IMG/VR virus record: IMGVR_UViG_3300006919_000139
Coordinates: 1 to 39,672 of that record
Reading direction: 5' to 3' (one strand)
DNA length: 39,672 nucleotides
Source: a virus
Under the pieces are notes generated by a model. That model worked only from the letters and a program-made list of their open reading frames with translations. It had not been told where the DNA came from and did not search any database. This document shows, in pieces, positions 1 through 39,672 of the stretch. Made by a program: the position numbers and the translations under genes. Within the stretch, counting starts at the first letter, position 1; each line of letters begins with the position of its first letter.

Positions 1-536
1 TGTTCGTCGGCCTCGTATTCCTCGACAGACTCCATCGTGTCGGCGCGCTGGGGGCCGTATTCGGACAGCGAGACCTCGATCCGAGGTGTGATCGTGTCGA
101 TTGTCGGCTCGTAGCGCACACGGACGATTCCCCTCCCGGGCAGCAGCATGTCCAGCACGGCAAGAGAGGCGGTGTGGTCGAAATCGTAACCGGGCTGGTC
201 AGTGGTGTAAGAGAGCGCGCGTTCGATGACCTCGGCCAAGGCCCGGCCCACGGGGTCGGCGTCCTTGAAACGGCGCGAGACGATGGGGGTCGGGGTCTGG
301 GCATAAAGCGACGGCTTCATCACCTGGACGTTGGACCAGAGGATATTGAAGACGTTCTTTTTCTTGCCCTTCTCGTCCCGATACCGCTCGACGGCCTTCT
401 TGGCGTCCTCCTCCCGCCATGTCTTTTCCGTCTTCGACGCGGACTCGATCTCGGCCAGCCAACGGGCCACGCGGCCCTTGTCGCCCTTGCCCGCGTCTTC
501 CGGCGTTTCGAGGGTCGAGACCTCCAATTCGCTCAC
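1..536 (-). CDS. Portal protein, N-terminal part (continues at the other window end)
   Basis: This is the first 178 codons plus two bases of the portal, the dodecameric ring at the capsid vertex through which DNA is packaged and ejected. The reading frame runs off position 1. Its last bases (CA) join the T at 39672 to give a His codon, and the frame continues at 38181-39671, giving 675 residues in all, close to P22-type portals. The N-terminus shows the portal-like stretch of helix, 'NVFNILWSNVQVMKPSLY' and 'PTPIVSRRF'. The start is GTG at 536, just after the TAG of the upstream gene. No better in-frame start exists upstream, and the ribosome site is weak, so translational coupling is likely. 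Product confidence comes mostly from the C-terminal half and from its place between terminase and scaffold. Confidence 0.85.
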   Translation of the reverse strand, partial: MSELEVSTLETPEDAGKGDKGRVARWLAEIESASKTEKTWREEDAKKAVERYRDEKGKKKNVFNILWSNVQVMKPSLYAQTPTPIVSRRFKDADPVGRALAEVIERALSYTTDQPGYDFDHTASLAVLDMLLPGRGIVRVRYEPTIDTITPRIEVSLSEYGPQRADTMESVEEYEADE

Positions 537-8975: not shown

Positions 8976-10007
8976 TTAGCCATTGTGCGAATCCGTTGCA
9001 TCTGTGCCGGTTTTTGTGCCGACCCTCGCAAGGTCGTCGTGCAGATCGGCCGTCGAGAGATGGGCATATTTCAGGGTCTGCTCCAGGCGCTTGTGGCCTA
9101 GCACCTCTTTCAGCCGCTCCAATCGGCCGCCGCGCTGCAAATACCAGCTTGCGAAAGTGTGCCGGAAATCGTGCGGGCGAAAATCGGACACCCCGGCCTT
9201 CCTGATAACCCTCGACAACCGATTCGACATGGCTGAGACGGCGTGCGGGTGGCCTGGGGCGGTGAAGAACAGATGTTGGCAGTGAAGGTGCCGGGGCAGC
9301 TTCTTGATCGTCTGCACGGCCGTTTCCGAGAGCGGCACGACCCTTGGCGCCCCGGTCTTGGTCACGTGCAGATAGATTTCCTTCCGGTCGAGGTCGATAT
9401 CGGCCCATGTCAGGGCCAGCATCTCGCCCAGGCGCATTCCGGTTTCCACCAGAAGAACGCAGGCGGGCAGGACGGCCCCGGCCTTGGCCTGGATCGCCGT
9501 CCATTCCTTCGGCCGCAGCCAGCGGACACGGGGTTTCGATTCCTTGATCGATCGCTTGGGCAGGGACTTGACGATGTTGTGATCCAGCCAATCCCTCTCG
9601 ACCGCGAGGGACAGAGCGGAGGACAGGCAGGCCAGATCCCGGCGGATCGTCGCATCGGAAACCACCTTGCGGCGCTCGGTCACGAACTCCGCGATGGTTG
9701 CCTTGCCGATCTCGTCCAGATAGGTCGCGTCTCCGATGCCAGCACGCAAAGCCTTTGCGCTCACCCGGTAACGGCGGGCGGCGCCTTCCTTCAGGCTCGG
9801 CATGTGTTCGGCTGCGAACATTCCCATCAATTCCTTCAACGTCCTGCGGGGCCGGCCGCCCCTGTGAATCTCCGCGTGGCGTTCTCTCAACGCCCGCTCG
9901 TGCTTTACGGCGACGGGCCTAGAAGTTGATCGGCTAGATTCTCGTACTTCCGTCCCGTTGATCTCGAATCGAACCCACCAAATCCTGCCGCGCTTGTAGA
10001 CGGACAT
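8976..10007 (-). CDS. int: Tyrosine-family integrase
   Basis: 343 residues. It catalyses attP x attB recombination for integration and, with excisionase, excision. Catalytic residues are visible: R192 (TGMRLGE), K217 (VTKTGAPR), H279 and R282 (HDFRHTF), H305 (LGHKRLEQT) and the nucleophile Y314 (KYAHL). The N-terminus ('SVYKRGRIWWVRFEINGTE') is an arm-binding-type domain. The start at 10007 is chosen for this conserved N-terminus and the GGGAGA upstream; the longer open frame is not conserved-looking. Its 5' end overlaps the excisionase gene by about 100 nt, and its stop abuts the attP tRNA fragment. Confidence 0.95.
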   Translation of the reverse strand: MSVYKRGRIWWVRFEINGTEVRESSRSTSRPVAVKHERALRERHAEIHRGGRPRRTLKELMGMFAAEHMPSLKEGAARRYRVSAKALRAGIGDATYLDEIGKATIAEFVTERRKVVSDATIRRDLACLSSALSLAVERDWLDHNIVKSLPKRSIKESKPRVRWLRPKEWTAIQAKAGAVLPACVLLVETGMRLGEMLALTWADIDLDRKEIYLHVTKTGAPRVVPLSETAVQTIKKLPRHLHCQHLFFTAPGHPHAVSAMSNRLSRVIRKAGVSDFRPHDFRHTFASWYLQRGGRLERLKEVLGHKRLEQTLKYAHLSTADLHDDLARVGTKTGTDATDSHNG

Positions 10008-10186
10008 GCTCTTTTCTCCCGCTGGCGTTTCCATTTGCGGAGAAGGTCGGCATCGAAGCGCCATGCACCTCGTTCGACATACTGGACCGCACCGGGAATG
10101 TTGCCCGCCTTCGCTTGGTTCGTCACCCAGCGAGGGCACATGCCCAACAGATCGGCGGCTTGTTGGGCAGTTAGCGGTTCGCTCAC
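9905..10186 (-). CDS. xis: Excisionase-like HTH (MerR/AlpA type) protein
   Basis: 93 residues. The N-terminal 55 residues ('LTAQQAADLLGMCPRWVTNQ', then 'AVQYVERGAWRFDADLLRKW') form a winged helix-turn-helix of the AlpA/excisionase class, which bends att DNA to direct integrase to excision. The C-terminal 35 residues overlap the integrase 5' end in another frame, as lambda xis overlaps int. The ATG at 10186 overlaps the upstream TGA. The xis name is by position and fold; it could instead be another small regulator. Confidence 0.78.
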   Translation of the reverse strand: MSEPLTAQQAADLLGMCPRWVTNQAKAGNIPGAVQYVERGAWRFDADLLRKWKRQREKRACPSTSAAGFGGFDSRSTGRKYENLADQLLGPSP

Positions 10187-11586: not shown

Positions 11587-11796
11587 TCAAGCGGCCTCCT
11601 CCGAAGGGATGAAATCGGCGTCTTCGATTTCGATGCCTTCCTTCGCCGCCGCCGCCTTGACCGCGCTCCAGCGCCTCAGAGGAATCACCCCGCGCTCCTT
11701 CCATCCCTGGACGGTCGTTGGGTTCTTATGGCCGAGCGCGCGGGCCAGGGCCGACAGGCCGCCGAATTGATCTATGATGCGTTCTGCTGGTGTCAT
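11587..11796 (-). CDS. Cro-like HTH regulator (carph-isopro/YdaS type)
   Basis: 69 residues: 'RIIDQFGGLSALARALGHKN', then 'TTVQGWKERGVIPLRRWSAV'. This is a single helix-turn-helix of the carph-isopro/YdaS kind used as Cro in many proteobacterial phages. It is divergent from the repressor gene, with the operators in the 85-bp gap. No Shine-Dalgarno precedes the ATG at 11796. The predicted -10 ends only 6 nt before it, so the mRNA may be leaderless. Confidence 0.85.
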   Translation of the reverse strand: MTPAERIIDQFGGLSALARALGHKNPTTVQGWKERGVIPLRRWSAVKAAAAKEGIEIEDADFIPSEEAA

Positions 11797-11802
11797 ACGG
11801 GA

Positions 11803-11831
11803 ATCTTACGCATCGACCGTAAGTATGTCAA
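11803..11831 (-). promoter_or_regulatory. Leftward early promoter (cro-cII-xis-int)
   Basis: On the minus strand: -35 TTGACA (11831-11826), a 17-nt spacer and -10 TAAGAT (11808-11803). It matches the rightward promoter at 12575-12604 closely, including the flanking TGCGTTGACA and TGCGTAA boxes. Both boxes are operator half-sites, so repressor would cover both hexamers. Confidence 0.8.
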
Positions 11832-11872
11832 CGCACAAAACGTATGGCGCTGCGTTTACGCAGACACCATTG
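11806..11872. promoter_or_regulatory. Left operator cluster for the phage repressor(s)
   Basis: Three sites. The first is a 17-bp site at 11806-11822 (TTACGCA-TCG-ACCGTAA) overlapping the cro -10. The second is a weaker 17-bp site at 11829-11845 (CAACGCA-CAA-AACGTAT) overlapping the -35. The third contains a perfect 14-bp palindrome CTGCGTTTACGCAG at 11850-11863 and a half-site TTACGCA at 11856-11862, near the cI start. The first two are spaced 23 bp centre to centre. Confidence 0.75.
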
Positions 11873-11881
11873 TCCCGCACC

Positions 11882-12532
11882 ATGACTAGAGCCGGACCCT
11901 TGGCGCGCGAGCTGAAGCGCATTCGAGAATCGGCCGGGCTTTCCATGCGGGAAGTCGCGGAGGCCCTGGGCCTTTCGATAACCGGATATCAGCACTACGA
12001 GGACCGATATAAGAAAGACTACCTGCCGCCTGAGATCGCGGATCATCTACAGAAAATTTTACGCGGTCGCGGGTTGACGGACGAAGATCTTTCAACTCTT
12101 AATTTCGGGAAGGCGCCCGTGCCCAGACGACCATCACACCCCTTGGGTGAACGCGATCTGCCAGTCTTAGGCGGCGCGCAAGGTGGGATGCAGGGTGTTT
12201 TAACGCTCGCGGGGGAAGCTGTGGACTGGGTTCATCGTCCGGCTGAACTGAACGGGGTTCGAGACGCCTTCGCCGTATTTATGGCTGGCGAGTCGATGGA
12301 GCCGAAATATCAGGCCGGCGACACGCTGTTCATTCATCCCCATATCCAGCCCCGGCCAGGCGATCATATTCTCATCCAATTGCGATCCGGCGAGGCCCTG
12401 GTTAAACGCCTCGAACGGCGGACCGAAGCCATCGTATACATACAGCAGTATAACCCGGCCGCGATTCTTGAAATCGCCACGGAATCAATCGAGCGCATCC
12501 AGCTCGTGATCGGCTCGATGGACCGCCGCTAA
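11882..12532 (+). CDS. cI: CI-type repressor with S24 (LexA-like) autoprotease domain
   Basis: 216 residues. Residues 5-60 are an N-terminal HTH ('LKRIRESAGLSMREVAEALG'). The C-terminal S24 domain has Ser138 (MAGESMEPKY) and Lys175 (ALVKRL), the catalytic pair for self-cleavage after RecA activation. The linker has GGAQGG at 97-102 where the cleavage site is expected. The repressor maintains lysogeny by binding the operators on both sides of its gene. The ATG at 11882 gives the normal N-terminus but has no Shine-Dalgarno; the open frame extends upstream to 11774 through the operators and is not used. Its orientation toward the rightward promoter is unlike lambda. Confidence 0.92.
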   Translation: MTRAGPLARELKRIRESAGLSMREVAEALGLSITGYQHYEDRYKKDYLPPEIADHLQKILRGRGLTDEDLSTLNFGKAPVPRRPSHPLGERDLPVLGGAQGGMQGVLTLAGEAVDWVHRPAELNGVRDAFAVFMAGESMEPKYQAGDTLFIHPHIQPRPGDHILIQLRSGEALVKRLERRTEAIVYIQQYNPAAILEIATESIERIQLVIGSMDRR

Positions 12533-22266: not shown

Positions 22267-22659
22267 TCAGTAGGTCCAGAGCCGGGGCCGGGGGTGGTCC
22301 CCATCCGCCAGCATGTCGATATGGATAAAGCGGCCATCCCAAGGGCCGTGTTGCTTCGGGCCGACGCCCTGGGCGCCTCTGGTGATGGCGAGGGAGAGAA
22401 GATAGAAGGCAGGCTCACCGGCAACGCCGATATCGGCCGCCTTGCCTGTCGTGTGCGGCCCGTCCCGCCCGGTCTTGGAGACCCGCGCGTTGTGATCCGG
22501 GCAGCGGAAGCCCGAGGAAATCACGATGGGCCGCTTGAACGCATTCCGCAGGCCCTGAAGCCATGCGAGGAAGTTCGGGTCCATGTCCGCGCGCCCGCAG
22601 CCGCAGTGACAGGTGAATTCCCGTTCGGAGAAGTTGGGGTAGAGGGACCAGTCGATCAT
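22267..22659 (-). CDS. M15-family peptidase endolysin
   Basis: 130 residues. Zinc ligands are seen in PHTTGKAAD (H69, D76) and FIHID (H113); SGFRCPDHN at 49-57 is the typical substrate loop, and an N-terminal C-x-C-x-C opens the chain. The M15A family cuts peptide bridges of peptidoglycan. There is no signal peptide, so it needs the holin. ATG 22659 overlaps the phosphoesterase stop (ATGA); the longer frame upstream is not used. Confidence 0.92.
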   Translation of the reverse strand: MIDWSLYPNFSEREFTCHCGCGRADMDPNFLAWLQGLRNAFKRPIVISSGFRCPDHNARVSKTGRDGPHTTGKAADIGVAGEPAFYLLSLAITRGAQGVGPKQHGPWDGRFIHIDMLADGDHPRPRLWTY

Positions 22660-23618
22660 GCCTCGATCACCTTGCCTCTGAATGAAACCAGCCCGTCGTC
22701 GAAGACCTCGGCCAGTTCGGGCGCCAATAAACGCCCCTGCCAATAGGTCAGGACGGCGAATCCGCTGCACCAGTTCTTGGGATTGTCTTCGGTATAGTCC
22801 GCGAATTGCGGGCCGTCGGGTTCGGCCATCGTCCCCGTGTCAACGCCATATCTTCGGCCGTTGTAATCGGCGATGGGGTTCCACTTGAGGGAATGAAGAT
22901 GCCCCGTGACCATGCTCTTGCCGGACCAGAGGGCATTATTGTGGGTGGCGTGCATCCCGCCCTTGAACCGGTGTTTGACCACGGTGTTGTCGTTGATCCA
23001 GGTGGACCAGCACGGCTCCCAATCCGGGAAATGGTCTTGAAGGTGGACGCCGTGAACCTTGGCGTATTCGGGGGCGACCTGGGCCAGCCGGGTTTCGAAG
23101 CGGGCATCGTGATTGCCCAGGGGCCATATCAGCCGGCAATCCTTTCCCGCCGCGTCGGATATTTCCTCGAGGCGTTCCTTGCAGGTCTCGATTTCCTGTA
23201 TGACCGTTGGCCGGGATTCCCAGCCGATCGGGGGGTGGCGGGATATACTCGCCCCGTCCATCACATCGCCGTTCATGATGACGGCCTTGGGCTTTATTTC
23301 CTTGATGAGCTTGACGAAGGCACGGTGGGCGGTTGAGACGATGCCGGGCCAGTAATGGGCGTCGGAACCGACCAGAACCTCCCCGTTGGGGATTGCGATT
23401 TCGATCCGCCCCGCGTGCTTGATCCCGTGTCGGTATCTCCCCCCTCCCGCGTGATAGGGCGGGGTCAACTGCCTGCCGTATTTCTTCTCCATCTTGACCC
23501 GTCTGTCATAGACCCGGCGGACGTTGATGTTCAGTCGTCGCGCCGTTTCATGCGGCCCATAGGCTTCGAACAGGTCTATGAAGTCCTGGTCGGCGCTCCG
23601 GGCGTTGGGATGGGTCAC
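22656..23618 (-). CDS. Calcineurin-like metallophosphoesterase with N-terminal HTH
   Basis: 320 residues. Residues 15-45 ('IDLFEAYGPHETARRLNINV') form a helix-turn-helix-like part. Residues 80-300 are the phosphoesterase with D86-x-H88 (GSDAHYW), D118 (NGDVMDG), GNHD at 168-171 and GHLH at 239-242, a full dimetal site. Phage relatives are protein phosphatases or nucleases. It lies inside the lysis cassette, coupled on both sides (GTGA, ATGA). GTG start at 23618. Confidence 0.9.
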   Translation of the reverse strand: MTHPNARSADQDFIDLFEAYGPHETARRLNINVRRVYDRRVKMEKKYGRQLTPPYHAGGGRYRHGIKHAGRIEIAIPNGEVLVGSDAHYWPGIVSTAHRAFVKLIKEIKPKAVIMNGDVMDGASISRHPPIGWESRPTVIQEIETCKERLEEISDAAGKDCRLIWPLGNHDARFETRLAQVAPEYAKVHGVHLQDHFPDWEPCWSTWINDNTVVKHRFKGGMHATHNNALWSGKSMVTGHLHSLKWNPIADYNGRRYGVDTGTMAEPDGPQFADYTEDNPKNWCSGFAVLTYWQGRLLAPELAEVFDDGLVSFRGKVIEA

Positions 23619-25664: not shown

Positions 25665-25844
25665 ATGAACTCAGAGAAAGTCGTCTCCGCCCTTCTCATC
25701 ATTCTGAATCTCGTCGTGATCGGCGTCATGGCGCTGATCGCCTGGGCGCTTGACGGGCTGGGGCCGGACTTCGTGTTCGGCGGTATTTCCGGCGCGGTCC
25801 TGGTTGGCCTCTATTTGCGCCTGAAACTCGGCTACTGGCCTTAG
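25665..25844 (+). CDS. Two-TM membrane protein on the opposite strand (moron candidate)
   Basis: 59 residues. Two hydrophobic segments ('VVSALLIILNLVVIGVMALI' and 'FVFGGISGAVLVGLYLRL') are separated by a short acidic loop. The gene fills exactly the gap between the tail-fibre and ejection-protein genes and ends 4 nt inside the latter, tail to tail. GGGG precedes the ATG. An independently expressed membrane protein in a late operon is typical of a moron such as a superinfection-exclusion factor; that role is inference. Confidence 0.65.
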   Translation: MNSEKVVSALLIILNLVVIGVMALIAWALDGLGPDFVFGGISGAVLVGLYLRLKLGYWP

Positions 25845-27961
25845 CGTGTCCCCGAGGCCAGCCCGCCGCTCGTTATCATGGTCGCCAACTTCCGCCTCGC
25901 CTCCGGTGTCACGTTGGCCCACAAATTCGCGGCCGGGGTTGCCACGGCGTCGTTCAGAAAGCCGGTCTGGCGGGCGCGGTCGGTCGTCAAAAGAATGTCG
26001 GCAAGGCTTGTCGCCGTCTTTTCGCTGGGCCGGGTCAGCGCCTGGAAGGGGGCCTTGATTGCTGGCCCAAGCATACCGAGTGTCTTGCCCGCGAGACTGT
26101 CGCCTTGCCGCGCACCCTGTAGCGATTCGAGCGCCCAGGACGGCATCCGCGACAGTTCGTCAATGTCCTGCTTCATGGGCGTCGTGTGGGAGCCTGCGCG
26201 CGGGCCGACCATGCGCTCGGTCTGCATCTTCTGCTGTTCAAGGCCGATGTCTCGCTTGAACGCCGCGAACCGCTCGGGGGGAAAGATGGCTTCCAGCCTC
26301 GTCCAGAGATCCGCCTTTTTGCCGGCGAATTTACCCGGCGCGCTTTGCGTATCGCTCTGAATGGTCTTGGACAATTCACGGCGGACGCCGAACTGAAACG
26401 CTTCCTGTTCCGCAGGTGTCATATTGGCGAAGGTCTTGCGCGTGATTTCCTCATCGCCTCGGAGGAACCGGCGGCCCATCCAAGTCGCGTCCTTGATCGC
26501 GGCCGGCCCGGCATAGGCGGCGCGGGCCTCCTTATATGCGGATCGGCCCGTCACCGAATCGGTGGTGATGTCGTCCAGTTTGGCGACAAGGGACTTGCGG
26601 ACGGAATTGATGGCGCGGCCCATCTCGTCGAGGTTCAGCTTTCCCGTGACAGGGTCGCGGTAGCCCTCAAGAATGTCGTCCATGCCGCGCTTGGCCGCAT
26701 CCATGGCGCGGAGATTGGGCGTCCCTTCGATGATGACCTTCCCCGCGTCGTCAAAGCCCTTGACCGCGTATTCCTGGAAATTGAAGGGGCGGCCTTCCGC
26801 GAGAGCTTCCAACTGCTGAATGCGGATGCCCTTGTTCATCCCCTGTTGGACGATGGGGTCGTCAAGGAACTGCTGAAGGCGGTCATCCCACTGAGCGAAG
26901 ACCTTGCCCGCCTTGTCTGATACGGGGGCGAACGCCTCGTCGTATAGCGGCCCCGCCTTGCCTCGCTGGGCGGCCGACAATTCGTCCAGGCTCTCATAGA
27001 ACCGATTGGGAGCGAGATTGTCCGCCGCCTTCTCCATGCGCCCCGCGCGCCCCGCCATGCGGTTGGCGACGAAATCATCCGCGATCTGCGTGGACTTGCC
27101 GGGGACATTGGCGGCGGCGCGAGCCATGCGCTGGGCGTTGATCCCCCCGACATCAGCGATTGCGACATCGTCACCGCTTTCGGCTAGGGCCTTCCGCACG
27201 GTTTCGACGGCAGCCTTGATATCGCCGCCGTTGCCCCTTGCGATGGCCTCCACGGCCTTGCGCTGGCCTTTGTCGGTATTACCGAATTGGTTGAGTATCC
27301 GGGCGACGACAGGCCGCGCCGCCGCGACCACGCCATCGACCACAGGCACCAGCAGCCCGCCGGTTCCGGCGCCCACCCCGGCCCCGGCCAAGCCTTGGGA
27401 CAGGCGGTTTTCCCACCCGCCTTCGGCGTTGCCTGAGCCGTAGACACCACCAAGAGCGCCGCCGCCGAGGGCAGCCTTGCCCATGCGCGGCAGCAACCCT
27501 GCCCCAGCCTTCGCGGCGGTCGCACCCATCACAGCCTTCGTCGCCGGGGACGCGATTGCGCCGCCGACCTCTCCAACGAAAGACGATACAGGGTATTCTT
27601 CCGCAAACTGCTCGCGGTCTTTCCGGTAGCCAGCGAGGCGGTCGTCATAGGCTTTGCCCATGTCGAACGGCTGACCGTCCACGAGCGCCCGCTTGCCAGC
27701 GACGAAGGGGGAATCCAGACCCGCCGCGATTTCGTCCATATAACCGCCAGCAGCGCCGGACGCGACGGCCTGGGCACCTTTGTTCAAATACCCCACAACA
27801 TCCTCAAGGGGCGAACGACGGACCTCTTGGCCGGCGAAGGGGTCGGCAGCCTGGCCCGCATTCTTTTGGACATAGGCCATGACATCCTGCTCGGACGCAC
27901 CTTCTGGTGCGTTGACCTCGTAGGTCTGGCCGTCGGGGCCGGTGACGCGGTATTTCGCCAT
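25841..27961 (-). CDS. Large internal virion/DNA-ejection protein
   Basis: 706 residues. The N-terminus 'AKYRVTGPDGQTYEVNAPEG' is a common first module of phage internal proteins. A Gly/Ala-rich hydrophobic stretch (about 145-225, 'GAGLLPRMGKAALGGGALGG') suggests membrane insertion. A helical remainder follows ('FYESLDELSAAQRGKAGPLY'). In podoviruses such proteins leave the head first and form the trans-envelope channel. The ATG at 27961 overlaps the upstream stop (TAATG). Confidence 0.8.
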   Translation of the reverse strand: MAKYRVTGPDGQTYEVNAPEGASEQDVMAYVQKNAGQAADPFAGQEVRRSPLEDVVGYLNKGAQAVASGAAGGYMDEIAAGLDSPFVAGKRALVDGQPFDMGKAYDDRLAGYRKDREQFAEEYPVSSFVGEVGGAIASPATKAVMGATAAKAGAGLLPRMGKAALGGGALGGVYGSGNAEGGWENRLSQGLAGAGVGAGTGGLLVPVVDGVVAAARPVVARILNQFGNTDKGQRKAVEAIARGNGGDIKAAVETVRKALAESGDDVAIADVGGINAQRMARAAANVPGKSTQIADDFVANRMAGRAGRMEKAADNLAPNRFYESLDELSAAQRGKAGPLYDEAFAPVSDKAGKVFAQWDDRLQQFLDDPIVQQGMNKGIRIQQLEALAEGRPFNFQEYAVKGFDDAGKVIIEGTPNLRAMDAAKRGMDDILEGYRDPVTGKLNLDEMGRAINSVRKSLVAKLDDITTDSVTGRSAYKEARAAYAGPAAIKDATWMGRRFLRGDEEITRKTFANMTPAEQEAFQFGVRRELSKTIQSDTQSAPGKFAGKKADLWTRLEAIFPPERFAAFKRDIGLEQQKMQTERMVGPRAGSHTTPMKQDIDELSRMPSWALESLQGARQGDSLAGKTLGMLGPAIKAPFQALTRPSEKTATSLADILLTTDRARQTGFLNDAVATPAANLWANVTPEARRKLATMITSGGLASGTR

Positions 27962-29115
27962 TATTCGACCTTTTGGATGGACCAGCCGGGAGGATTGTCG
28001 TTCATGGGTGCCGCGCCGGGACGGTTGCCGGGGCCGTGGATGATGTCGAGATAGACGTTCTCAAGCCGGTCAAGGTTCCGGTTGAACTGCTCCTTGCTCT
28101 GCGACTGCGCGAGGCTGCCGTAGACCGACTGCAACAAGTCCATTTCCTGATTGTTGACTGCCCCCAAGGCCCCGCCTGTAGGCGAAGAGTCGCGCATCTG
28201 CTGCAAGCGATCGAAGCCGATATTGGCTTTGATCGTGTCCAGGGTCGAGGAGAGGTCGGCGGCCGCCGAGCCGGGAATAACCGAAAGAAACGACCCTGCC
28301 CCGGTGGTGGGGATTGTCGATTCATTCGCCAGTTTCCTCGCACGGCGGATGTCTTCGACCACGATATTCGCGCTGGTCTTCTTCCGTGCGTCCTTCTCCG
28401 CCGCAGCCGCTTGCGCGCCCGCTTGCTCGGTCGCTGCCGGGCTGCCGGGAATCGGTTCCATGCTCATCGAGCCGTCCGGTCCGGGAACAAGGCGATAGCC
28501 GGGGGGGATGGTCCCCATGTTGCGGGCGTCGATGGATGTCTGGGCGCGGCTTGCCTCACCCTTGGCCTTCACATAGTCGAGATAGCTGCCGGGGAAGCCG
28601 TTCTGCTTGGCAAAATTGTACTCCGCCACCAGCGCCGGGTCGGATTGGGGCTTGGCATCGACGCCCGCAATCGGGTTGCCGTTGGCATCAAATCGCTGCT
28701 CGCCGGGGCCGAGGGTGAATCCCTGGGCCTCGGGAGACGCGATGCGCTTCATCAGGAGGCTGGACGCCATTTCCGCTGCCTGCGGGTTGTCCTTCTGCCC
28801 CAACAGCGCCGCCATCGCGCCTTCATAGCCCCCGGTCGGGTTCTGGTTGGGGGCGACCGACCCGGTGTCGGGGTCAACCCAAGGTTTGGCACTGGACCCG
28901 CCGACCAATGCTTGAACCATGGCCTTGAATTTTTCGTCCTTGTCTTCGTCCTGTCGGCGCAGGGAACCGGCGGTAAGCCCCGCAAGCGCACCTTGGCCGA
29001 GCCGCGCGAAACCCTCTCCGAGCGACTGCACCGGGGCCGTCGAAGCACCCTGCGCCAGAAGTTGGGCGAGGATGTCGCGCTGGCGCGGGTTCTGCTGAAC
29101 GAAGGTCTGAGGCAT
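27961..29115 (-). CDS. Internal virion/DNA-transfer protein
   Basis: 384 residues. It starts 'PQTFVQQNPRQRDILAQLLA'; a Gln/Ala-rich central linker is followed by the C-terminal 'IKANIGFDRLQQMRDSSPTG', 'GALGAVNNQEMDLLQSVYGS' and 'NRNLDRLENVYLDIIHGPGN', a block repeatedly seen in podovirus ejection proteins. It is predicted to be mostly helical and to work with the two neighbours. The named family was not confirmed. Confidence 0.75.
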   Translation of the reverse strand: MPQTFVQQNPRQRDILAQLLAQGASTAPVQSLGEGFARLGQGALAGLTAGSLRRQDEDKDEKFKAMVQALVGGSSAKPWVDPDTGSVAPNQNPTGGYEGAMAALLGQKDNPQAAEMASSLLMKRIASPEAQGFTLGPGEQRFDANGNPIAGVDAKPQSDPALVAEYNFAKQNGFPGSYLDYVKAKGEASRAQTSIDARNMGTIPPGYRLVPGPDGSMSMEPIPGSPAATEQAGAQAAAAEKDARKKTSANIVVEDIRRARKLANESTIPTTGAGSFLSVIPGSAAADLSSTLDTIKANIGFDRLQQMRDSSPTGGALGAVNNQEMDLLQSVYGSLAQSQSKEQFNRNLDRLENVYLDIIHGPGNRPGAAPMNDNPPGWSIQKVE

Positions 29116-30033: not shown

Positions 30034-30451
30034 GGTTCCTCGCAAACTTTCTGTCTTCGGAGAGAAGGCCGTAAATCATCGCGTCCTGGCGGCCGAAGCC
30101 CCTGCGGGCCACGCCTTCCATTTTGAAACCGATGCCTTCGAGCAGCTTTCGGACGCGCTTGTTCTTCCGCTCGCACAAGGCCGTGACGCGGGAACAGCCG
30201 ATTGAGAACGGGTAATCGAGAATGCCGGCGATGTTGGATCGCGTGGCCCATCTCGCGCTTTCAGCCGCGAAGCTGATCTGGATATCCGGCCCCGAATAGG
30301 CGTGAAACACCGCCCCGGCGATCAGGCGGCGGCCCTCCGCCACGCCGATTGCCCGGAACGGCCGCCATCCTTCTGAAGTCCCAACCGCCGGTATTCGCCT
30401 CGCCACCCACTCCCCAACCAAGTCATCGAGGCCGTGAACGAGTTCAGACAT
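29999..30451 (-). CDS. GNAT-type N-acetyltransferase-like protein
   Basis: 150 residues. 'FRAIGVAEGRRLIAGAVFHA', 'AILDYPFSI'-like beta strands and 'KRVRKLLEGIGFKMEGVARR' with 'QDAMIYGLLSED' give the GNAT outline (acetyl-CoA fold with the RimJ-like GFk.EGv.R....QDailygm ending). Single-copy GNATs are frequent in podovirus tail operons but their targets are unknown. It overlaps the tail hub gene by 8 nt. Confidence 0.78.
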   Translation of the reverse strand: MSELVHGLDDLVGEWVARRIPAVGTSEGWRPFRAIGVAEGRRLIAGAVFHAYSGPDIQISFAAESARWATRSNIAGILDYPFSIGCSRVTALCERKNKRVRKLLEGIGFKMEGVARRGFGRQDAMIYGLLSEDRKFARNHGQKQQSASAA

Positions 30452-31979
30452 AGCCGCCCGGCTCGTAGAGAATGTCGGTCGAGTACCAGCGCACCTGCTG
30501 GACGTTGGTCGAGGTGCGAATCCGAACCGAGGCCGAATAGCCGATATTCGCGGCGGTCTGCCACGGCTTCTGGATTTCCAGACCCTCGGCCCAGGGGTCA
30601 ACGTCCCATGTCGCATCGTCCCAGACCGCGCCTTCGGTCGTGATCGAAGACGCTTCGAAGGTCGGGATATCGGCGTCGAAATCCACACCCAGGCCCAGGC
30701 GGATGGGCAAATTGCCATCGGCGGCCACGACAGGGCGATACATGGTAAACCGCTTCAACCGGCCCCTGGCGCGCATGTAATCGTAAGCGGTCTGGGCATC
30801 GCCCTCGATGTTCGAGCCTTCGTCACCGAATCCGGTGTCGGCCTTCTTGACCTTGCCGTCGATGCCGCCGAAATACAGATCATCGCCGTAGACCGCCCAG
30901 CAGATGCCGTTGAGGCCCTTGAACCGGCACCACGCCCCCGTGGCCGTGTTCACCACGTATTGGTGGTAGAGGGTCGAGGCCACGACGGGCACGTTGAACA
31001 GCGCCATGGTCCCCTTGGGATAGAGGATGGGCTGCCAACCGAACGTGGACTTGTAATCGCGCACGGCGTCGTTGACCGCGCCGACGATGGCGTCCGAAAG
31101 CGCCGCGCTCTTCGCCCCCCTCCCGAACCGGAGAAAGGGGGAAAGAGGGACGAATCCATCGGCGGTGATAACCGCGAGCTCCGCCCCCAGGCGCAGAAGA
31201 CAGCGCCGGCCAACGGGAGCGCCGATATAGAAGGTTCCGATCAGGGACCACGCCGTCGCGTCTCCGGGGTCTGTCCCCGCATAAACGATGACGCTTCCCG
31301 TCTCCATAACGAAGACGATGCGGTCGTCCGGGCCATCGCCACCGTCTCCGGTCATCGTCCCGATCGCCATGAGGTCGCCGCCCTGGCTGTGGACGTTGGC
31401 GAGGTTGAATTCGGTCAAAGTTCCCGAGATCGAATTCAGGCCCCCGTACCAGAAGGAGGCGCTGTTGTTCTCGGCAAAGAACAGGCGGTTCTTGAAGGCC
31501 GCGACATTGACCAGATCCGTCGCCGTCAACCCGCTTCCGGTAAAGGTCGTGGTCGAGAGCGTGCCGTTGTATTTCCTCGGCGTGTCGGCCCCGTTGACCA
31601 TGATGAGATAGGAGTTGAAATTGACGCCCTGCCAGCGGTTATTGGTCAGGGACGAAGCGAGCGCCGCCCCCACCGCACCCGAAGACGAGGCGTCGTAAAT
31701 CGCGTCATTGCCGAAGGCGAGCAGCTTTTCCGTGCCGCCGCTGTTGTAAACCAGCAGCGATTCCACATCGCCCGAACCGATTCCCGTTGCATGAACGGCG
31801 GAACCCTTGCGAAGCCCGACATAGCCCTCTTGGGGGAAGTAGTTGTCGAGAACCACCGCATAGCCGGGGTCCATCCCGTCCAGGCCGTCGCGGGCGTTCC
31901 AGCCCTTCACAGGGGCGCGGATCGAATGCCCTCGCGCCGTCGCTTGGGCGGCGGTGTTCTTACGGAGAGGGGCGAGCAT
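30444..31979 (-). CDS. Tail hub/nozzle protein (P22 gp10-like position)
   Basis: 511 residues, all-beta in appearance, with many 'LLVYNSGGTEKLLAFGND' and 'FKNRLFFAENNSASFWYGG'-type strand repeats, as in beta-propeller nozzles. 'VVLDNYFPQEGYVGLRKGSA' is a recurrent motif near the N-terminus of podovirus tail proteins. It plugs and stabilises packaged DNA below the portal. Start and stop abut the neighbours exactly. Confidence 0.75.
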   Translation of the reverse strand: MLAPLRKNTAAQATARGHSIRAPVKGWNARDGLDGMDPGYAVVLDNYFPQEGYVGLRKGSAVHATGIGSGDVESLLVYNSGGTEKLLAFGNDAIYDASSSGAVGAALASSLTNNRWQGVNFNSYLIMVNGADTPRKYNGTLSTTTFTGSGLTATDLVNVAAFKNRLFFAENNSASFWYGGLNSISGTLTEFNLANVHSQGGDLMAIGTMTGDGGDGPDDRIVFVMETGSVIVYAGTDPGDATAWSLIGTFYIGAPVGRRCLLRLGAELAVITADGFVPLSPFLRFGRGAKSAALSDAIVGAVNDAVRDYKSTFGWQPILYPKGTMALFNVPVVASTLYHQYVVNTATGAWCRFKGLNGICWAVYGDDLYFGGIDGKVKKADTGFGDEGSNIEGDAQTAYDYMRARGRLKRFTMYRPVVAADGNLPIRLGLGVDFDADIPTFEASSITTEGAVWDDATWDVDPWAEGLEIQKPWQTAANIGYSASVRIRTSTNVQQVRWYSTDILYEPGGYV

Positions 31980-33248
31980 CTAGTATTTGTCCTGCTGACC
32001 GGAACCAACGACAGACGCGCCCAACAGACCGGCCCCGGCTACCCCGGCGAGGAGGTCGGCGCTGCCCTTCTTGGAGGGGTCGAACTTGGCGAACTTGGAG
32101 CGGATGTTGGCGGGGTTGAGAACGGCGATCTGATCGCTCGGGCCGATTCCCCGCAGACCCTCATCAACGCGCTTAAATCGAATTGTGTCGTAACCCTGTT
32201 CCTTCGCCTCACGGATGATCGCGGAAAACAGATCGGAGTTGTAAAAGGGAACTGTGACGACCTTCTGCTTGCCGGGCTTAATGAGAGCTGGGACCACGTT
32301 GGCCCCGTTAAATACGCTGCCCACAACATCATCCGCAGACGCTATATCTGCGAAGTGGCTCGCCAAGGCAGGGTCCGGCGTAAACCACGACGCAGCCTCG
32401 TTATCGCCACCTGCGGCGCGCTTGGGCGGGGTCGGAGAGAACTCGGCAAAGTCTGTCCCTCTCCCGCTATACATCGTCTCGTTTAGGTCGAACCCCATCC
32501 CCTTCGCCCTCGCCATACGGGAGGCTTCGTCTAGGGGGAGGGGGTCTACAAACCGCGACTGGATGTTCTCGGGATTCCCGACAACTCTCACCAGATGCTC
32601 GCCATCCGATCCTGCATTGGGGTGGTAGAACTCGACATAATCCAACCCCTCGTCCTTCATTATTTGCGCGGCAACAGCATCCGGGGCCATGTCATCCATC
32701 AGGGCGTCGATAATTTCCTCATCAATGCTTCGCCCCTTCATATCCTTGGCCATCTTGGCGGGCATTACGTTCGCGGCCTCGCCCGTGTTTGTCAGCGCAG
32801 ACCCCTGCGAATAACGCCCCGCCTGGTTCGGGTCTGTTGTCCACATGGTATTCTCGCGCAATGGGTGGTCGCCGGAGACGCCCCGATACCACTCATCGCT
32901 GCCAAATGCCTTCCCAACCGCCCGCCCCGCCTTCGCCACGTTCTCCGTCCCAAGGGCCATCGCAAGCGGGTTGTCGGCCTTCGCCATCAACTGATCGACC
33001 AGCGGCGCGCCCTGTTGGCGCAGCGCATCCACTTGACGCTCGTTCGCCATGATCTGACGGTCGGCGGGCTGCATCCCCAATAGCCCCGCAAGGCCGCCCT
33101 GCTGGTAGAAATCGGACACCGCGCCGCCCGCCTGCTTGGCCTTGTCCATCATGGCTTGGGCGAGGCGGTCCACAGCAGACGGCTCCGGCGGCATGGTCGG
33201 GACAGCCGCGCCGAATGCATTTCCCCGGCGCAGCATCAGAGGCTCCAA
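31980..33248 (-). CDS. Tandem ADP-ribosyltransferase-like virion-region protein
   Basis: 422 residues. Two copies of one domain are visible. Copy 1 (about 118-235) has WYRGV, WTTDP, ANVMPAKM, EGLDYVEF and GNPENIQSRF. Copy 2 (about 257-390) has MYSGR, WFTPDP, ANVVPALI, QGYDTIRFKR and NPANIRSKF. This order (Y-R/S-G, then the F/WTxDP-A strand, then G-D-x-I/V and an NP-x-NIxS ending) is typical of polyvalent-type ADP-ribosyltransferases. The C-terminus (396-417) is Gly/Ala-rich and hydrophobic, like an ejection segment. The gene lies between head-tail and tail hub genes. Enzyme activity is inferred; a clear catalytic Glu was not assigned. Confidence 0.62.
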   Translation of the reverse strand: MEPLMLRRGNAFGAAVPTMPPEPSAVDRLAQAMMDKAKQAGGAVSDFYQQGGLAGLLGMQPADRQIMANERQVDALRQQGAPLVDQLMAKADNPLAMALGTENVAKAGRAVGKAFGSDEWYRGVSGDHPLRENTMWTTDPNQAGRYSQGSALTNTGEAANVMPAKMAKDMKGRSIDEEIIDALMDDMAPDAVAAQIMKDEGLDYVEFYHPNAGSDGEHLVRVVGNPENIQSRFVDPLPLDEASRMARAKGMGFDLNETMYSGRGTDFAEFSPTPPKRAAGGDNEAASWFTPDPALASHFADIASADDVVGSVFNGANVVPALIKPGKQKVVTVPFYNSDLFSAIIREAKEQGYDTIRFKRVDEGLRGIGPSDQIAVLNPANIRSKFAKFDPSKKGSADLLAGVAGAGLLGASVVGSGQQDKY

Positions 33249-33943
33249 CTGCCCTCGGGAACGCGCACGGTCGGGCGGATATCCGTCACGCTGGAATCGG
33301 TGTGGAGGGTCTGCCTCGGAACGTCCCGCGACAGCGCGTCATGGACCCGGTATTCGTATTCCCGGAACGGCTCGCTGTAGTCCAGACCTCGGGATTGGAG
33401 ATAGCGCCAGCGCAGGCCCAATTCCAACAGGCTTTCGTCCAATATCCCGGTGTCGTCATCCGCCGCCCAGGCCGTCTGACCCACAGACCCCGAGGATTGG
33501 CACCATTCCGTGGACTGGTACTCGAGGGCGATGGTTTCACCCGCAGGGGGGACGGGGCTGAGAAGCAGATTGCCGCCTCTGATCCTGAAATCGTAGTACG
33601 GGCCGGCCACGATCTGCGCCTTGCGCGCCTGCCACTGCTGCGGCCCGATATCGCCCCCCAACGAGTCCTGCTGGGTGCGGTTCCAGGGTGTGGCAGAGAT
33701 GATCCAGGCCACATCGTCGCCGATGATGGAAGAGACGGCACCCTGGTTCTCCACTGCCGTCGTGGTATGCGTGGCCTCTTTCGTCAGGACTTGCCACCGG
33801 CCCCGCCTTGCGAGGGACTTGCCGTCCATGTTCGAGAGCGCAAGCAGGGTTCTCACGGTCTGATCCGTCGAGGACACGACGGCGGAGGGGCGGGGCAGGC
33901 CCACCACATCCGCGACGTTCTGAACAACCGTGAGAAGGGTCAT
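33236..33943 (-). CDS. Head-tail adaptor (P22 gp4-like position)
   Basis: 235 residues. The C-terminal 'DESLLELGLRWRYLQSRGLD' and 'FREYEYRVHDALSRDVPRQT' are a conserved podovirus block. The middle is beta-rich ('YDFRIRGGNLLLSPVPPAGE'). It is placed directly before the tail hub genes and is likely to complete the head-tail connection. The start ATG 33943 follows the previous stop directly (TAAATG), and the 3' end overlaps the ART-like gene by 13 nt. Confidence 0.75.
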   Translation of the reverse strand: MTLLTVVQNVADVVGLPRPSAVVSSTDQTVRTLLALSNMDGKSLARRGRWQVLTKEATHTTTAVENQGAVSSIIGDDVAWIISATPWNRTQQDSLGGDIGPQQWQARKAQIVAGPYYDFRIRGGNLLLSPVPPAGETIALEYQSTEWCQSSGSVGQTAWAADDDTGILDESLLELGLRWRYLQSRGLDYSEPFREYEYRVHDALSRDVPRQTLHTDSSVTDIRPTVRVPEGSWSL

Positions 33944-34558
33944 TTACGCGGCTTTCTTTCGGGTGCGCTTGCGCGAGGTCTCGGCCAGGACATCGGGGTC
34001 TTGGTCGTTCAACTGCGCGCGCAGGGATTCGATGGTGCGGTCCTTCTGCTCCATCTCGTCTTTCAGGGTCTCGACAAGACGTTCGAGCTTGTTCAGCTTT
34101 TCCGTGGCCTTGCCCGAGCCGTCTGCCGTGGTGAGCCAGGTCTGCGCCTTCTGCTGCAACGCCCTCGCCCCCATGCCGATGCGTTCCAGAGCCGAATCGG
34201 AACAGGTCGCGAGGTCTTCGACGGTGCGGATTTCGGCCCGCAGGCACATCTCGGCCTGAGCGGGGGAGATGGGCGGCCAATCCTTGATCGGAGTGCCTTC
34301 CAGCGGCGCTTCCCGGCCTTCGAGGAAAGCGTCATAAGCGCCCTTGTAGTGGCCGTAGAAATTGTCGGTGCGCTTCTTCCGCAGCCATTCCTCGGCCACG
34401 GCCTCGATGACGAGATTGCCGCCCGGCGGCGTCACGACGACGTAGACCACATCCTTCGCGACGTAATGCCCGGCCTCGATGGACGCTTCGCGATCCTCGA
34501 CGGCTCGGGTCTGGAATTCGATATAGACCGGGCGTTCGTCTTCGACGGGGTTCAGCAT
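33944..34558 (-). CDS. Hypothetical head-tail region protein with HhH-like and coiled-coil parts
   Basis: 204 residues. 'VYIEFQTRAVEDREASIEAG' is beta-rich, then 'IRTVEDLATCSDSALERIGM' resembles a helix-hairpin-helix, then a coiled coil ('KATEKLNKLERLVETLKDEM'), and the last residues are basic (RKRTRKKAA). ATG 34558 has AAGGAG spaced 5 nt upstream and is preferred to the longer frame. Its role in the virion is unknown. Confidence 0.7.
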   Translation of the reverse strand: MLNPVEDERPVYIEFQTRAVEDREASIEAGHYVAKDVVYVVVTPPGGNLVIEAVAEEWLRKKRTDNFYGHYKGAYDAFLEGREAPLEGTPIKDWPPISPAQAEMCLRAEIRTVEDLATCSDSALERIGMGARALQQKAQTWLTTADGSGKATEKLNKLERLVETLKDEMEQKDRTIESLRAQLNDQDPDVLAETSRKRTRKKAA

Positions 34559-35346
34559 GAAATCTCCTTGTTTTTCCACATCCAGGGCAAAAGCCCGTCA
34601 CCGTGGGCCTCGACCCGGCAGCCCTGGGCTTCAAGCCCGAGAGCCGCGTCCATGAAATGCCGGGCCTGCCAAGCCAGCGGCCAATTGGTCAGAAACCCCC
34701 GCCCCGCGTGAGCGACCGTGAAGGCGTCGTCTGGGGTCGATTTCCCGCTGGCATGTGTCCGCCCTTCGGAGAAGGACGAATCGCAGCCATATAGGTGCAT
34801 TTCCCGGTATCCGAGCCTGTAGCCCACGCTCATCGCCCTCAAAGCGGCGGTGGAACCGCCTCTGAGCAAGGTGGCCGTGGGGTAGTGCTTTAAAACCACA
34901 GGCGCGATATCGACTTCCGGCGTCGAGCAATGCCAGAGCCACACCCCATAGCCCTTGAGGCTATCGAACAAGCCGGGGTCGCATTGCGAGGCCAGGAAAT
35001 ACGAAACCCTTGCCTGGGGCGTCAGAACCGTTGTGGGCCGGGCGTCCATGCAGACGCAGGCATCGAAACCGATGCCGTGATTAACCAAGAGATCGTGGGC
35101 GCCTTTGATTGCGCAAATCGTCGCGTTCTTATGGCTTTGAATATCGTCAAACGAATCGGGCAGGGACGGGCCATCGGCCGCGATCACCCAAACCCCTGAA
35201 TGGGAGTCCTTCACGACTTCATGCAGGCCGCGCCCGCAGTTGATGTCGATGTTTCTGAGGATATGCGCGGTCGGGACGTTGCCGCGCGTCTCCCGGTTGG
35301 AAAGAAGCGGGCGGAGGTCTCCCCCCGCCCGCACATCCGGCGTCAC
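34552..35346 (-). CDS. DUF115/MptE-like domain protein
   Basis: 264 residues. 'SGVWVIAADGPSLPDSFDDI', 'CAIKGAHDLLVNHGI', 'DACVCMDARPTTV' and 'EMHLYGCDSSFSEGRTH' follow the DUF115 (6-hydroxymethylpterin pyrophosphokinase MptE-like) layout, a fold shared with some glycosyltransferases. In phage operons it is often beside capsid or decoration genes, and virion glycosylation is a reasonable guess. It starts with GTG at 35346, one base shared with the preceding TAG, without a good ribosome site. Confidence 0.7.
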   Translation of the reverse strand: MTPDVRAGGDLRPLLSNRETRGNVPTAHILRNIDINCGRGLHEVVKDSHSGVWVIAADGPSLPDSFDDIQSHKNATICAIKGAHDLLVNHGIGFDACVCMDARPTTVLTPQARVSYFLASQCDPGLFDSLKGYGVWLWHCSTPEVDIAPVVLKHYPTATLLRGGSTAALRAMSVGYRLGYREMHLYGCDSSFSEGRTHASGKSTPDDAFTVAHAGRGFLTNWPLAWQARHFMDAALGLEAQGCRVEAHGDGLLPWMWKNKEISC

Positions 35347-37888: not shown

Positions 37889-38184
37889 CAGGTCATCTCT
37901 TTCGCTGTTTCGGATATGGCGCGGTCAACGAATCGCTCGATTTCCCGCGTCCGGTATTCGTCCGCCGTCTTGCGGTGCCACTCGACTTCACCCTTTTCCA
38001 AGATCCGGCAGCCGTGGCGGGCAAGGTTCTCGCGGTGCTCGCGCTTGCCGTCCACGGTCTTGCCGGTGATCGGGCAGTCGTAGGGCTTGTAATCCCCGGA
38101 AATGAAGGGGCCGGGATTGCGGCCCCGGCCTTGGTTCACGACTTCAACGACACCTTGGCCGCTGTGGATGAATCGGCGTCTCAT
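37888..38184 (-). CDS. Hypothetical protein, 98 aa, between portal and scaffold
   Basis: Basic soluble protein. 'RRRFIHSGQGVVEVVNQGRG', 'SGDYKPYDCPITGKTVDGKR' and 'EHRENLARHGCRILEKGEVE' match a small podovirus family (a CP.TG..V.gr..HR..L.r.GC pattern) that is always found beside the portal. Function unknown; the two Cys and His residues could bind zinc. Confidence 0.72.
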   Translation of the reverse strand: MRRRFIHSGQGVVEVVNQGRGRNPGPFISGDYKPYDCPITGKTVDGKREHRENLARHGCRILEKGEVEWHRKTADEYRTREIERFVDRAISETAKEMT

Positions 38185-39672
38185 GCCGCTTTCTCCGTCT
38201 CCTGCGCTTCCGCTTGAATCCGCGCCATCTTCACCTGATGCGCGGTGGCGTTCTCGATGGCTTCCATCCGCAACCGTTCCATCTTCGTCTGATGCTCGAC
38301 CTGGGCGAGTTCGGCTTCGGATTGGACCTTCTGGCCCTGGGCTTGCGCCTGCGCCATGTCGGCCTGCGCCTTCGCGGCATCGACCTGTTGCTTCATCTGC
38401 AACGCCTGCTGATCGGCTTGCGCCTGTGCGGCCTCTGCCTGGGCCTGCGGGTTGGGCTGGCCTTCGGGCTGGTTGCCGATGCTCTCCAGGGCGTCTTCGA
38501 CCTCTCTGCCCATGCGGAAGCGGCGGATGGCGGAGAGAAGCAGGGTCTTCGCAACCTCCATCGGCACAAAGCCAGCCTGCACGGCGGGGCCGATGCCCGT
38601 GAGGAATTGGTTGATGCCGCCCAGCAATTCCGTGACCTGTTCGCGCTCGGCGGCGAGGTCGGCGGCGATGGTCGAATCCGTCTCGATGTCGATGCGGTAG
38701 CCGCGCAGCTTGTCGCTCCGCATGATCTGGACGGCGGACGCCACGAGTTCCGGCGGCAGCCCCGTCATCTCGGCCAGGATCGCGGGTTCGAAATGCTCGG
38801 CCAGGATCTCGGCCTTCAGGCGCATGAGATCGCGCAGGAAGCGTTGAACCTCCCTCTGCCGGTCCCGCAGGCGGGTCGATCCGGTCTGCGCCTTGATCTG
38901 CTGCGCGCCCAGCGTCTCCCTCGGGTCGGAAGCGCCCCGGATGATGTCGGACAGGCCCGTGATTTCGAAGATCGTCTGCTTCAGCGCCTCGCGCTGGACG
39001 TACAACTCCCGCAGGACCGCCGCCGCCCGGTCGATCGGCATCATCCAGATACCGTCTTCGATCTTCCGCCCCGACGCGACATACTGCGCCGCGTTTTCGG
39101 CGGGGACGAAGGTGTTGTCGTCCTCATTGAACAGCCGGTCGAGTTCGGCCATCGTCGAGTCGTAGACGCCCCGCAACCGCAACCCGTCCACGATCTTATT
39201 GATCCGGGACGTGATGAGGTTCAGTTCCTCTGCCTGATTCTCGTACTGCGAATAATCCGTGACCGGGACCAAGCTATCGCTGGTTTCCAGGGCCATCAGG
39301 GGGCGGGGAATGGGGAAGAAGCCCGTCAGACCGAGGGGGTCGCTTTCGCGCTTCAGCGGCGCTTCCTTGTGCGCGGGCGCGATGAACAGAACCTCGCGGT
39401 CGTCCTTGTCCCAAATCTCCCAGACCCGGGCGCGTTTGAATATCTCGCTGTCGTCGCCTTCCTTGCTGTCGATCTCGATATCGAGACTGATCTCGCCCCC
39501 GACCTCCCCGAACGCATCCTCCAGTTCGGCACGGGTCATCTGGTGCTCGAAGGCGATCCAGGACACATCCTCCCAGGTCTTGCCCGGCCCGCGCCTGAAA
39601 CCGTCCCACTGCACGGCCTCGCAATAGACAACCTGTTCGACCGTCTCGTCATAGGGGTCGCCGTTGACGAAA
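38181..39672 (-). CDS. Portal protein, C-terminal part (continues from the window start)
   Basis: 497 codons including the stop. It joins the N-terminal part at position 1 through the shared codon CAT. At the junction 'EEYEADE|H|FVNGDPYDE' is followed by 'WDGFRRGPGKTWEDVSWIAF', the usual portal wing sequence. The middle ('LRELYVQREALKQTIFEITG', 'SDIIRGASDPRETLGAQQIK') matches P22-type portals. The C-terminal 100 residues are a Gln/Ala-rich helix barrel-like tail ('QAQAEAAQAQADQQALQMKQ'). The open frame has no stop through the window edge. Confidence 0.93.
   Translation of the reverse strand, partial: FVNGDPYDETVEQVVYCEAVQWDGFRRGPGKTWEDVSWIAFEHQMTRAELEDAFGEVGGEISLDIEIDSKEGDDSEIFKRARVWEIWDKDDREVLFIAPAHKEAPLKRESDPLGLTGFFPIPRPLMALETSDSLVPVTDYSQYENQAEELNLITSRINKIVDGLRLRGVYDSTMAELDRLFNEDDNTFVPAENAAQYVASGRKIEDGIWMMPIDRAAAVLRELYVQREALKQTIFEITGLSDIIRGASDPRETLGAQQIKAQTGSTRLRDRQREVQRFLRDLMRLKAEILAEHFEPAILAEMTGLPPELVASAVQIMRSDKLRGYRIDIETDSTIAADLAAEREQVTELLGGINQFLTGIGPAVQAGFVPMEVAKTLLLSAIRRFRMGREVEDALESIGNQPEGQPNPQAQAEAAQAQADQQALQMKQQVDAAKAQADMAQAQAQGQKVQSEAELAQVEHQTKMERLRMEAIENATAHQVKMARIQAEAQETEKAA

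What the first reader, a model, noticed from the sequence alone, without database searches (positions are those of the whole stretch)
31980..33248. Virion-region protein with two tandem ADP-ribosyltransferase-like domains
The 422-residue protein repeats one domain twice (YRG/YSG, WTTDP/WFTPDP, ANVxPA, G-D/T-x, NPxNIxS). The gene sits between head-tail adaptor and tail hub genes, where proteins destined for ejection are encoded, and its C-terminus is a hydrophobic Gly/Ala segment. T4 injects ARTs with its DNA to reprogram the host; a duplicated ART in a podovirus ejection position could be an undescribed injected effector. The ART call is from motif order, not a search.
Basis: partly seen in the sequence, partly recalled or inferred. 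Interest (0 to 1): 0.8.

Follow-up and report, generated by a model that had tools for sequence, protein, structure and literature searches.

The report
Twin ART-like phage cargo protein
A short-tailed phage carries, in the middle of its particle-building genes, a protein made of two degenerate copies of an ADP-ribosyltransferase domain; this kind of protein is already known to be widespread in phages, but both copies here have lost the histidine thought to hold NAD, so they may no longer be ordinary enzymes.

Summary
The ORF is real. It lies on the minus strand; the likely start is ATG 33236 (418 aa), not TTG 33248. The internal repeat is real but divergent (blastp E = 0.003, 0/1000 shuffles). 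Copy 2 is homologous to phage ART-PolyVal domains: PF18760 E = 6e-4 but under the curated cut-off, close relatives above it, and the model's best PDB matches are all PARP catalytic domains. Copy 1 is a weaker relative whose ten best fold matches are all ART superfamily. The gene is an insertion between tubeA and tubeB: ten annotated relatives have the two adjacent. Two P22-like phages carry a relative in the same slot, others beside terminase or portal. The canonical ejection genes lie elsewhere (about 25841-29115), so 'ejection position' is overstated. Tandem ARTs in putatively packaged phage proteins are already described (Iyer 2017), so the class is not new. Most likely a late-expressed, virion-associated ART-fold cargo with altered or lost catalysis. 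Packaging, injection and activity are untested.

The parts
31980..33236 (-). Tandem ART-like gene, likely start ATG 33236 (alternative TTG 33248), 418 aa
   Evidence: ORF and sequence; TGATG overlap with the upstream stop, stop abuts next ATG; relatives of copy 2 in 33 IMG/VR loci
32964..33236 (-). N-terminal region (about residues 5-95), helical-looking, no relatives found outside this phage
   Evidence: No Pfam match; a residue 1-241 search found only the identical contig L002
32550..32963 (-). ART-like copy 1 (about residues 96-233): YRGVSG, WTTDP, ANVMPA, NPENIQS; strand-1 His replaced by Arg
   Evidence: AF2 pLDDT 72.5, pTM 0.64; ten best PDB matches are ART superfamily but best E is only 0.06
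32079..32546 (-). ART-like copy 2 (about residues 235-390): pre-helix LPLDEASRMARAKGMGFD, YSGRG, WFTPDP, ANVVPA, SDQIAVLNPANIRS; strand-1 His replaced by Ser
   Evidence: PF18760 E 5.8e-4, 21.1 bits, cut-off 31.2; AF2 pLDDT 69.8, pTM 0.66; PDB matches all PARP; BFVD matches include annotated PolyVal ARTs and an N4-like vRNAP
31983..32102 (-). Conserved C-terminal extension SKFAKFDPSKKGSADLLAGVAGAGLLGASVVGSGQQDKY with hydrophobic Gly/Ala segment
   Evidence: RSKFAKFDP invariant in A1, partly because searches were seeded on it; tails; hydropathy
33236..33943 (-). tubeA / head-tail adaptor gene upstream
   Evidence: phrog_6013 1.4e-44
30444..31979 (-). tubeB / P22 gp10-like gene downstream
   Evidence: phrog_5107 9e-107; matches phiGT1 'tubular tail B' and 'phage stabilization protein'
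25841..29115 (-). Ejection-type genes of this phage: 384 aa (27961-29115) and 706 aa (25841-27961)
   Evidence: 384-aa protein matches phrog_2534 'released from the phage upon host infection' 1.4e-9; 706-aa protein matches phrog_5880, unknown, 3e-50; their order after tubeB matches phiGT1 injection proteins

Best explanation
The gene is a late-expressed cargo gene inserted between tubeA and tubeB of a P22/LUZ24-type 'ejectosomal' podovirus. It encodes two tandem, diverged domains descended from the phage ART-PolyVal (PARP-like) family, followed by the family's conserved C-terminal extension. SHOWN: homology of copy 2, internal duplication, ART-like predicted fold, insertion between two virion genes that are adjacent in relatives, and loss of the family's near-invariant strand-1 histidine in both copies. 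INFERRED: (a) it is made with the particle and most likely enters it, as proposed for the family; (b) it reaches the host with the DNA; (c) copy 2 (Ser) probably does not bind NAD in the standard way, while copy 1 (Arg in strand 1, a Glu near the last strand) could be a residual or altered NAD-using site or also dead; (d) its action on the host is therefore by a weakened or changed ADP-ribosyl/NAD reaction or by binding (host protein, NAD, ADP-ribose), not necessarily Alt-like modification. About 0.6 that it is virion-associated; about 0.35 that either copy has ADP-ribosyltransferase or NADase activity.
For: Repeat statistics; family HMM on copy 1 against shuffles; PF18760 on copy 2; relatives with the same tail above the PF18760 cut-off: L003 47.6, L024 50.6, L017 66.3 bits with three stretches, MW202573 65.5, L125 46.3, L121 43.2. 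PDB fold search for copy 2 returns only PARP1/2/4/tankyrase catalytic domains in its top 50 (best E 2e-4, prob 1.00, TM 0.3-0.44); BFVD returns PolyVal ARTs and a Roseobacter vRNAP (E down to 7e-10). Insertion: tubeA abuts tubeB in ten annotated podovirus relatives. Relatives of the ART gene lie in late gene clusters: same slot in MW202573 and L027; beside terminase, portal or a TTA-like gene in others. Domain partners in relatives include an SLT transglycosylase-like stretch (below cut-off), LPD23 and ParB-like. His: 24 of 26 non-redundant domains, exceptions are window copy 2 (Ser) and L086 (Arg); PARP9 and PARP13, lacking that His, are listed as inactive (PMC9189837).
Against: Copy 2 misses the PF18760 cut-off; TM-scores are below 0.5, models are of middling confidence and were built on 12-13 sequences. 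Copy 1 fold matches are weak (E at least 0.06), and its model used copy-2 homologues as alignment. Late-operon position also suits lysis or structural genes. No proteomics for this phage or a close relative was found. Arg replaces His in one other relative (L005/L086), so Arg could be a working variant.
Confidence: 0.55

Rival explanations
1. Active injected effector: at least one copy ADP-ribosylates host proteins right after entry, as T4 Alt does.
For: Family placement, late virion context, published proposal that polyvalent ARTs are packaged and modify host proteins (PMC5512222, PMC9503650). Copy 2 keeps an acidic residue at the start of the last strand (SDQIAV), and copy 1 has Arg as R-S-E enzymes do.
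Against: His lost in both copies, Trp in place of the strand-2 Tyr in both (Trp also occurs in close relative L003); H-less PARPs are inactive.
Confidence: 0.25
2. Structural role: the ART-like domains are an assembled part of the neck or tail (co-opted fold), encoded between tubeA and tubeB because the protein sits between them in the particle.
For: Strict operon coupling; same slot in two P22-like phages; catalytic residues eroded while the C-terminal extension is kept.
Against: Ten annotated relatives make the same neck without it; related genes sit at several different places in the late region; most relatives keep the catalytic His.
Confidence: 0.12
3. Late, non-packaged host-directed or superinfection/defence-related protein made in the infected cell, riding in the virion operon for its late promoter.
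For: The comparable interval in phiM5 holds lysis genes as well as particle proteins, and BUCT555 has putative holin and endolysin just before tubeA.
Against: Relatives fused to a virion-type transglycosylase-like domain (L017) and a fold match to an N4-like vRNAP protein argue for packaging in the family.
Confidence: 0.2

Closest known systems
ART-PolyVal (PF18760), Tox-ART-HYD2 clade ARTs of phage polyvalent proteins (Iyer et al. 2017, PMC5512222)
   Same: Sequence homology of copy 2, same strand/helix order, PARP-like fold, several copies per protein possible, late virion gene neighbourhood.
   Different: Both copies lack the strand-1 His and have Trp for the strand-2 Tyr; copy 2 below Pfam cut-off, copy 1 without a Pfam match; no other recognised domain in the protein.
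MW202573 'DNA repair protein' (679 aa, P22-like phage) and IMG/VR L027
   Same: ART-type domains (two Pfam stretches in MW202573), the SKFA/SRFA tail and the same slot between adaptor and gp10 genes.
   Different: Canonical YHG[TS] or FHGS motifs kept; longer proteins.
Octadecabacter Antarctic DB virus 2 gp6 (MW805364), P22-necked podovirus
   Same: Relative of copy 2 in a cultured podovirus, late gene cluster.
   Different: YHGA motif, single recognised ART-like domain, lies between terminase and a tail tubular gene.
T4 Alt/ModA/ModB
   Same: ART superfamily; Alt is packaged and injected.
   Different: R-S-E clade, long-tailed phage, active enzymes; no sequence match found here.
Human PARP9 / PARP13 (inactive PARPs)
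   Same: ART fold with the NAD-binding His replaced.
   Different: Eukaryotic, multi-domain; analogy only.

Membership tests
ART-PolyVal (PF18760) | Profile score at or above the curated cut-off | tested here: not met
   Copy 2 21.1 bits (21.6 alone) vs 31.2; copy 1 no match. Homologues with the same tail pass.
ART-PolyVal (PF18760) | ART (PARP-like) fold | tested here: met
   Copy 2: all top-50 PDB matches PARPs, best E 2e-4, though TM < 0.5. Copy 1 only weakly: best E 0.06, ten best all ART superfamily.
ART-PolyVal (PF18760) | Histidine in strand 1 (H-Y-D) | tested here: not met
   Arg (copy 1), Ser (copy 2); His in 24 of 26 family domains; definition from PMC5512222.
ART-PolyVal (PF18760) | Tyrosine in strand 2 | tested here: inconclusive
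   Trp in both copies by alignment; relatives use Trp, Phe or Tyr.
ART-PolyVal (PF18760) | Acidic residue in strand 5 | tested here: inconclusive
   Copy 2 SDQIAVLNP has Asp; copy 1 GEHLVRVVGNP has Glu but register is uncertain.
Phage polyvalent proteins | Two or more domains of disparate activity in one polypeptide | tested here: not met
   Only two copies of one domain type recognised; N-terminal region without match.
Phage polyvalent proteins | Gene among late virion genes | tested here: met
   relatives.
Virion-packaged, injected effectors (T4 Alt-like function) | Present in particles and delivered to the host | not testable with these tools
   No proteomics found for this phage or a close relative.
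T4 Alt/VIP2 clade ARTs | R-S-E active site and sequence homology to Alt | tested here: not met
   No Alt/VIP2 family in Pfam or NCBIfam scans; homology goes to the PARP-like clade.

The most novel reading that the evidence does not exclude
A virion cargo built from two 'pseudo-ART' domains: a phage counterpart of inactive PARPs that acts by binding (NAD, ADP-ribose signals, or the targets of host ART/NAD-based immunity) rather than by ADP-ribosylation, delivered by a short-tailed phage.
Probability: 0.2. Interest if true: 0.65.

Novelty: new variant of a known kind. Interest (0 to 1): 0.38.

Why it matters
If the protein is packaged and the His-less domains still act, it would show that phage ART domains work outside the H-Y-D rule or as non-enzymatic effectors, relevant to NAD/ADP-ribose based antiviral immunity. 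It also marks the tubeA-tubeB boundary of ejectosomal podoviruses as a recurrent cargo slot that can be mined for further effectors.

Tried and rejected
Searches in cellular genomes with the alignment and with the whole protein gave no relative; the motif-seeded first step is narrow, so this does not prove absence. Copy 1 alone found no relative except the identical contig. PDB sequence search gave only chance matches; NCBIfam nothing. L002 is 100% identical over 8174 b, so no substitution-rate test was possible. The idea that SKFAKFDP-LLAG is a free-standing packaging signal was weakened: it also sits inside longer proteins, directly after the last ART strand, so it is better read as part of the domain. 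A T4 Alt-type assignment was rejected (clade mismatch). The OANV2 paper was checked for virion proteomics of its ART-like gp6: none seen in the passages of the main text. Lower GC3 of the ART gene (0.74 vs 0.81 in both neighbours) fits acquisition but is weak evidence.

Full report
WHAT IS THERE. The finding's coordinates hold one ORF on the minus strand. The first TTG gives 422 aa, but ATG 33236 overlaps the upstream stop (TGATG) with GGAG six bases before it, and the gene's stop abuts the ATG of the next gene, so 418 aa is the better reading. Comparing the two halves gives blastp E = 0.003 (27% over 122 aa) and a Smith-Waterman score no shuffle reaches (z = 5.2). A family HMM built only from other phages scores copy 2 at 123.8 bits and copy 1 at about 15 bits, where the best of 4000 shuffles reaches 6.6; hhalign of copy 1 against the copy-2 family aligns 92 columns with probability 93.8 (that alignment contains copy 2).

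WHAT IT IS. Copy 2 matches Pfam ART-PolyVal at E = 5.8e-4, 21.1 bits against a cut-off of 31.2. Thirty-three IMG/VR loci encode relatives, several passing the cut-off. An AlphaFold2 model of copy 2 (pLDDT 69.8, pTM 0.66) gives only PARP catalytic domains among its 50 best PDB matches, best E = 2e-4, with TM-scores of 0.3-0.44, and annotated PolyVal ADP-ribosyltransferases plus a Roseobacter virion RNA polymerase protein among viral predictions. Copy 1 models with the same order of strands and helices (pLDDT 72.5). Its ten best PDB matches are all ART superfamily (RES toxin, diphtheria toxin domain, PARPs, tankyrase), but with E of 0.06 or worse, and the model leaned on copy-2 homologues.

ACTIVE SITE. 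Iyer et al. define this ART family by His in strand 1, Tyr in strand 2 and Asp in strand 5 (PMC5512222). Among 26 non-redundant domains carrying the SKFAKFDP tail, 24 have His; the exceptions are copy 2 of this protein (Ser) and one relative (Arg) (the motif choice prefers His, a mild bias). Copy 1 has Arg at the aligned position. Trp replaces the strand-2 Tyr in both copies, as in the close relative L003. An acidic residue is present near strand 5 in both. PARP9 and PARP13, which lack the His, are described as inactive (PMC9189837). Loss of standard activity is thus inferred, strongly for copy 2 and less so for copy 1, since Arg is the residue used by R-S-E ARTs.

SURROUNDINGS. Going downstream: portal, scaffold-like gene, major capsid protein, small virion gene, MptE-like gene, a small gene of the phrog_20268 family, tubeA, this gene, tubeB, GNAT gene, virion protein, ejection-type genes, fibre-type gene. 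Ten annotated podoviruses with a homologous tubeB have tubeA and tubeB adjacent, with no gene between; the unannotated MT835830 was not resolved. The gene is therefore an insertion. MW202573 and L027, P22-like phages, carry a relative in exactly this slot; others have it beside terminase, portal or a TTA-like gene. The nearest phage relative by portal and capsid (L004) has its ART-like gene just upstream of portal instead. So the late cluster is the constant, the exact slot is not. Ejection-type genes lie after tubeB, as in phiGT1 (PMC10386132), and phiM5 shows that the interval after tubeA can hold lysis genes as well as particle proteins. Position alone therefore does not show ejection.

HOW IT MAY WORK. 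Packaging with the particle and delivery with DNA is the published proposal for this family (PMC5512222; PMC9503650) and is inference here. Once in the host, either a changed NAD/ADP-ribosyl reaction (copy 1) or binding by a non-enzymatic fold is more likely than plain Alt-like modification. Rivals are an active effector, a structural role and a non-packaged late protein; each has a refuting experiment in the fields above.

NOVELTY. Multi-copy ARTs in phage proteins thought to be injected have been described since 2017, so the class is known. The variant here - a compact protein of two tandem copies, both without the canonical His, in the tubeA-tubeB slot - was not found described in the papers searched (a partial library). 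I do not file it as a canonical ART-PolyVal enzyme because the score cut-off and the histidine were tested and not met; I file it as a diverged descendant.

Noticed in passing
window 1-536 and 38181-39672 (-): The portal gene runs across the ends of the record: the N-terminal part reads at 536..1 and appears to continue at 39672. The record therefore looks like a circularly permuted, near-complete genome although no terminal repeat was found.
   Followed up: partly
window 34552-35346 (-): MptE-like protein (PF01973, E = 1e-13, above cut-off) inside the virion operon, where relatives carry HNH, GDSL hydrolase or lysis genes; another likely cargo gene.
   Followed up: partly
window 8976-10139 (-) and 11774-12532 (+): By eye a tyrosine integrase and an HTH/S24-type repressor, suggesting a temperate phage; not tested by profile search.
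   Followed up: no
window 30444-31979 (-): PHROG label 'amidase' (phrog_5107) is misleading: homologues are annotated tubular tail B / phage stabilization protein.
   Followed up: yes
L017:3664-6606, L012:3367-7020: Relatives with several ART-like domains in one protein fused to SLT transglycosylase-like (L017; three ART-PolyVal stretches) or LPD23 and ParB-like domains (L012).
   Followed up: partly
window 22267-23618 (-): M15 peptidase endolysin gene (PF08291) overlapping a metallophosphoesterase gene.
   Followed up: no
window 25841-27961 (-): The 706-aa putative ejection protein has a match in only one annotated phage, Rhizobium phage RHph_I1_23.
   Followed up: no
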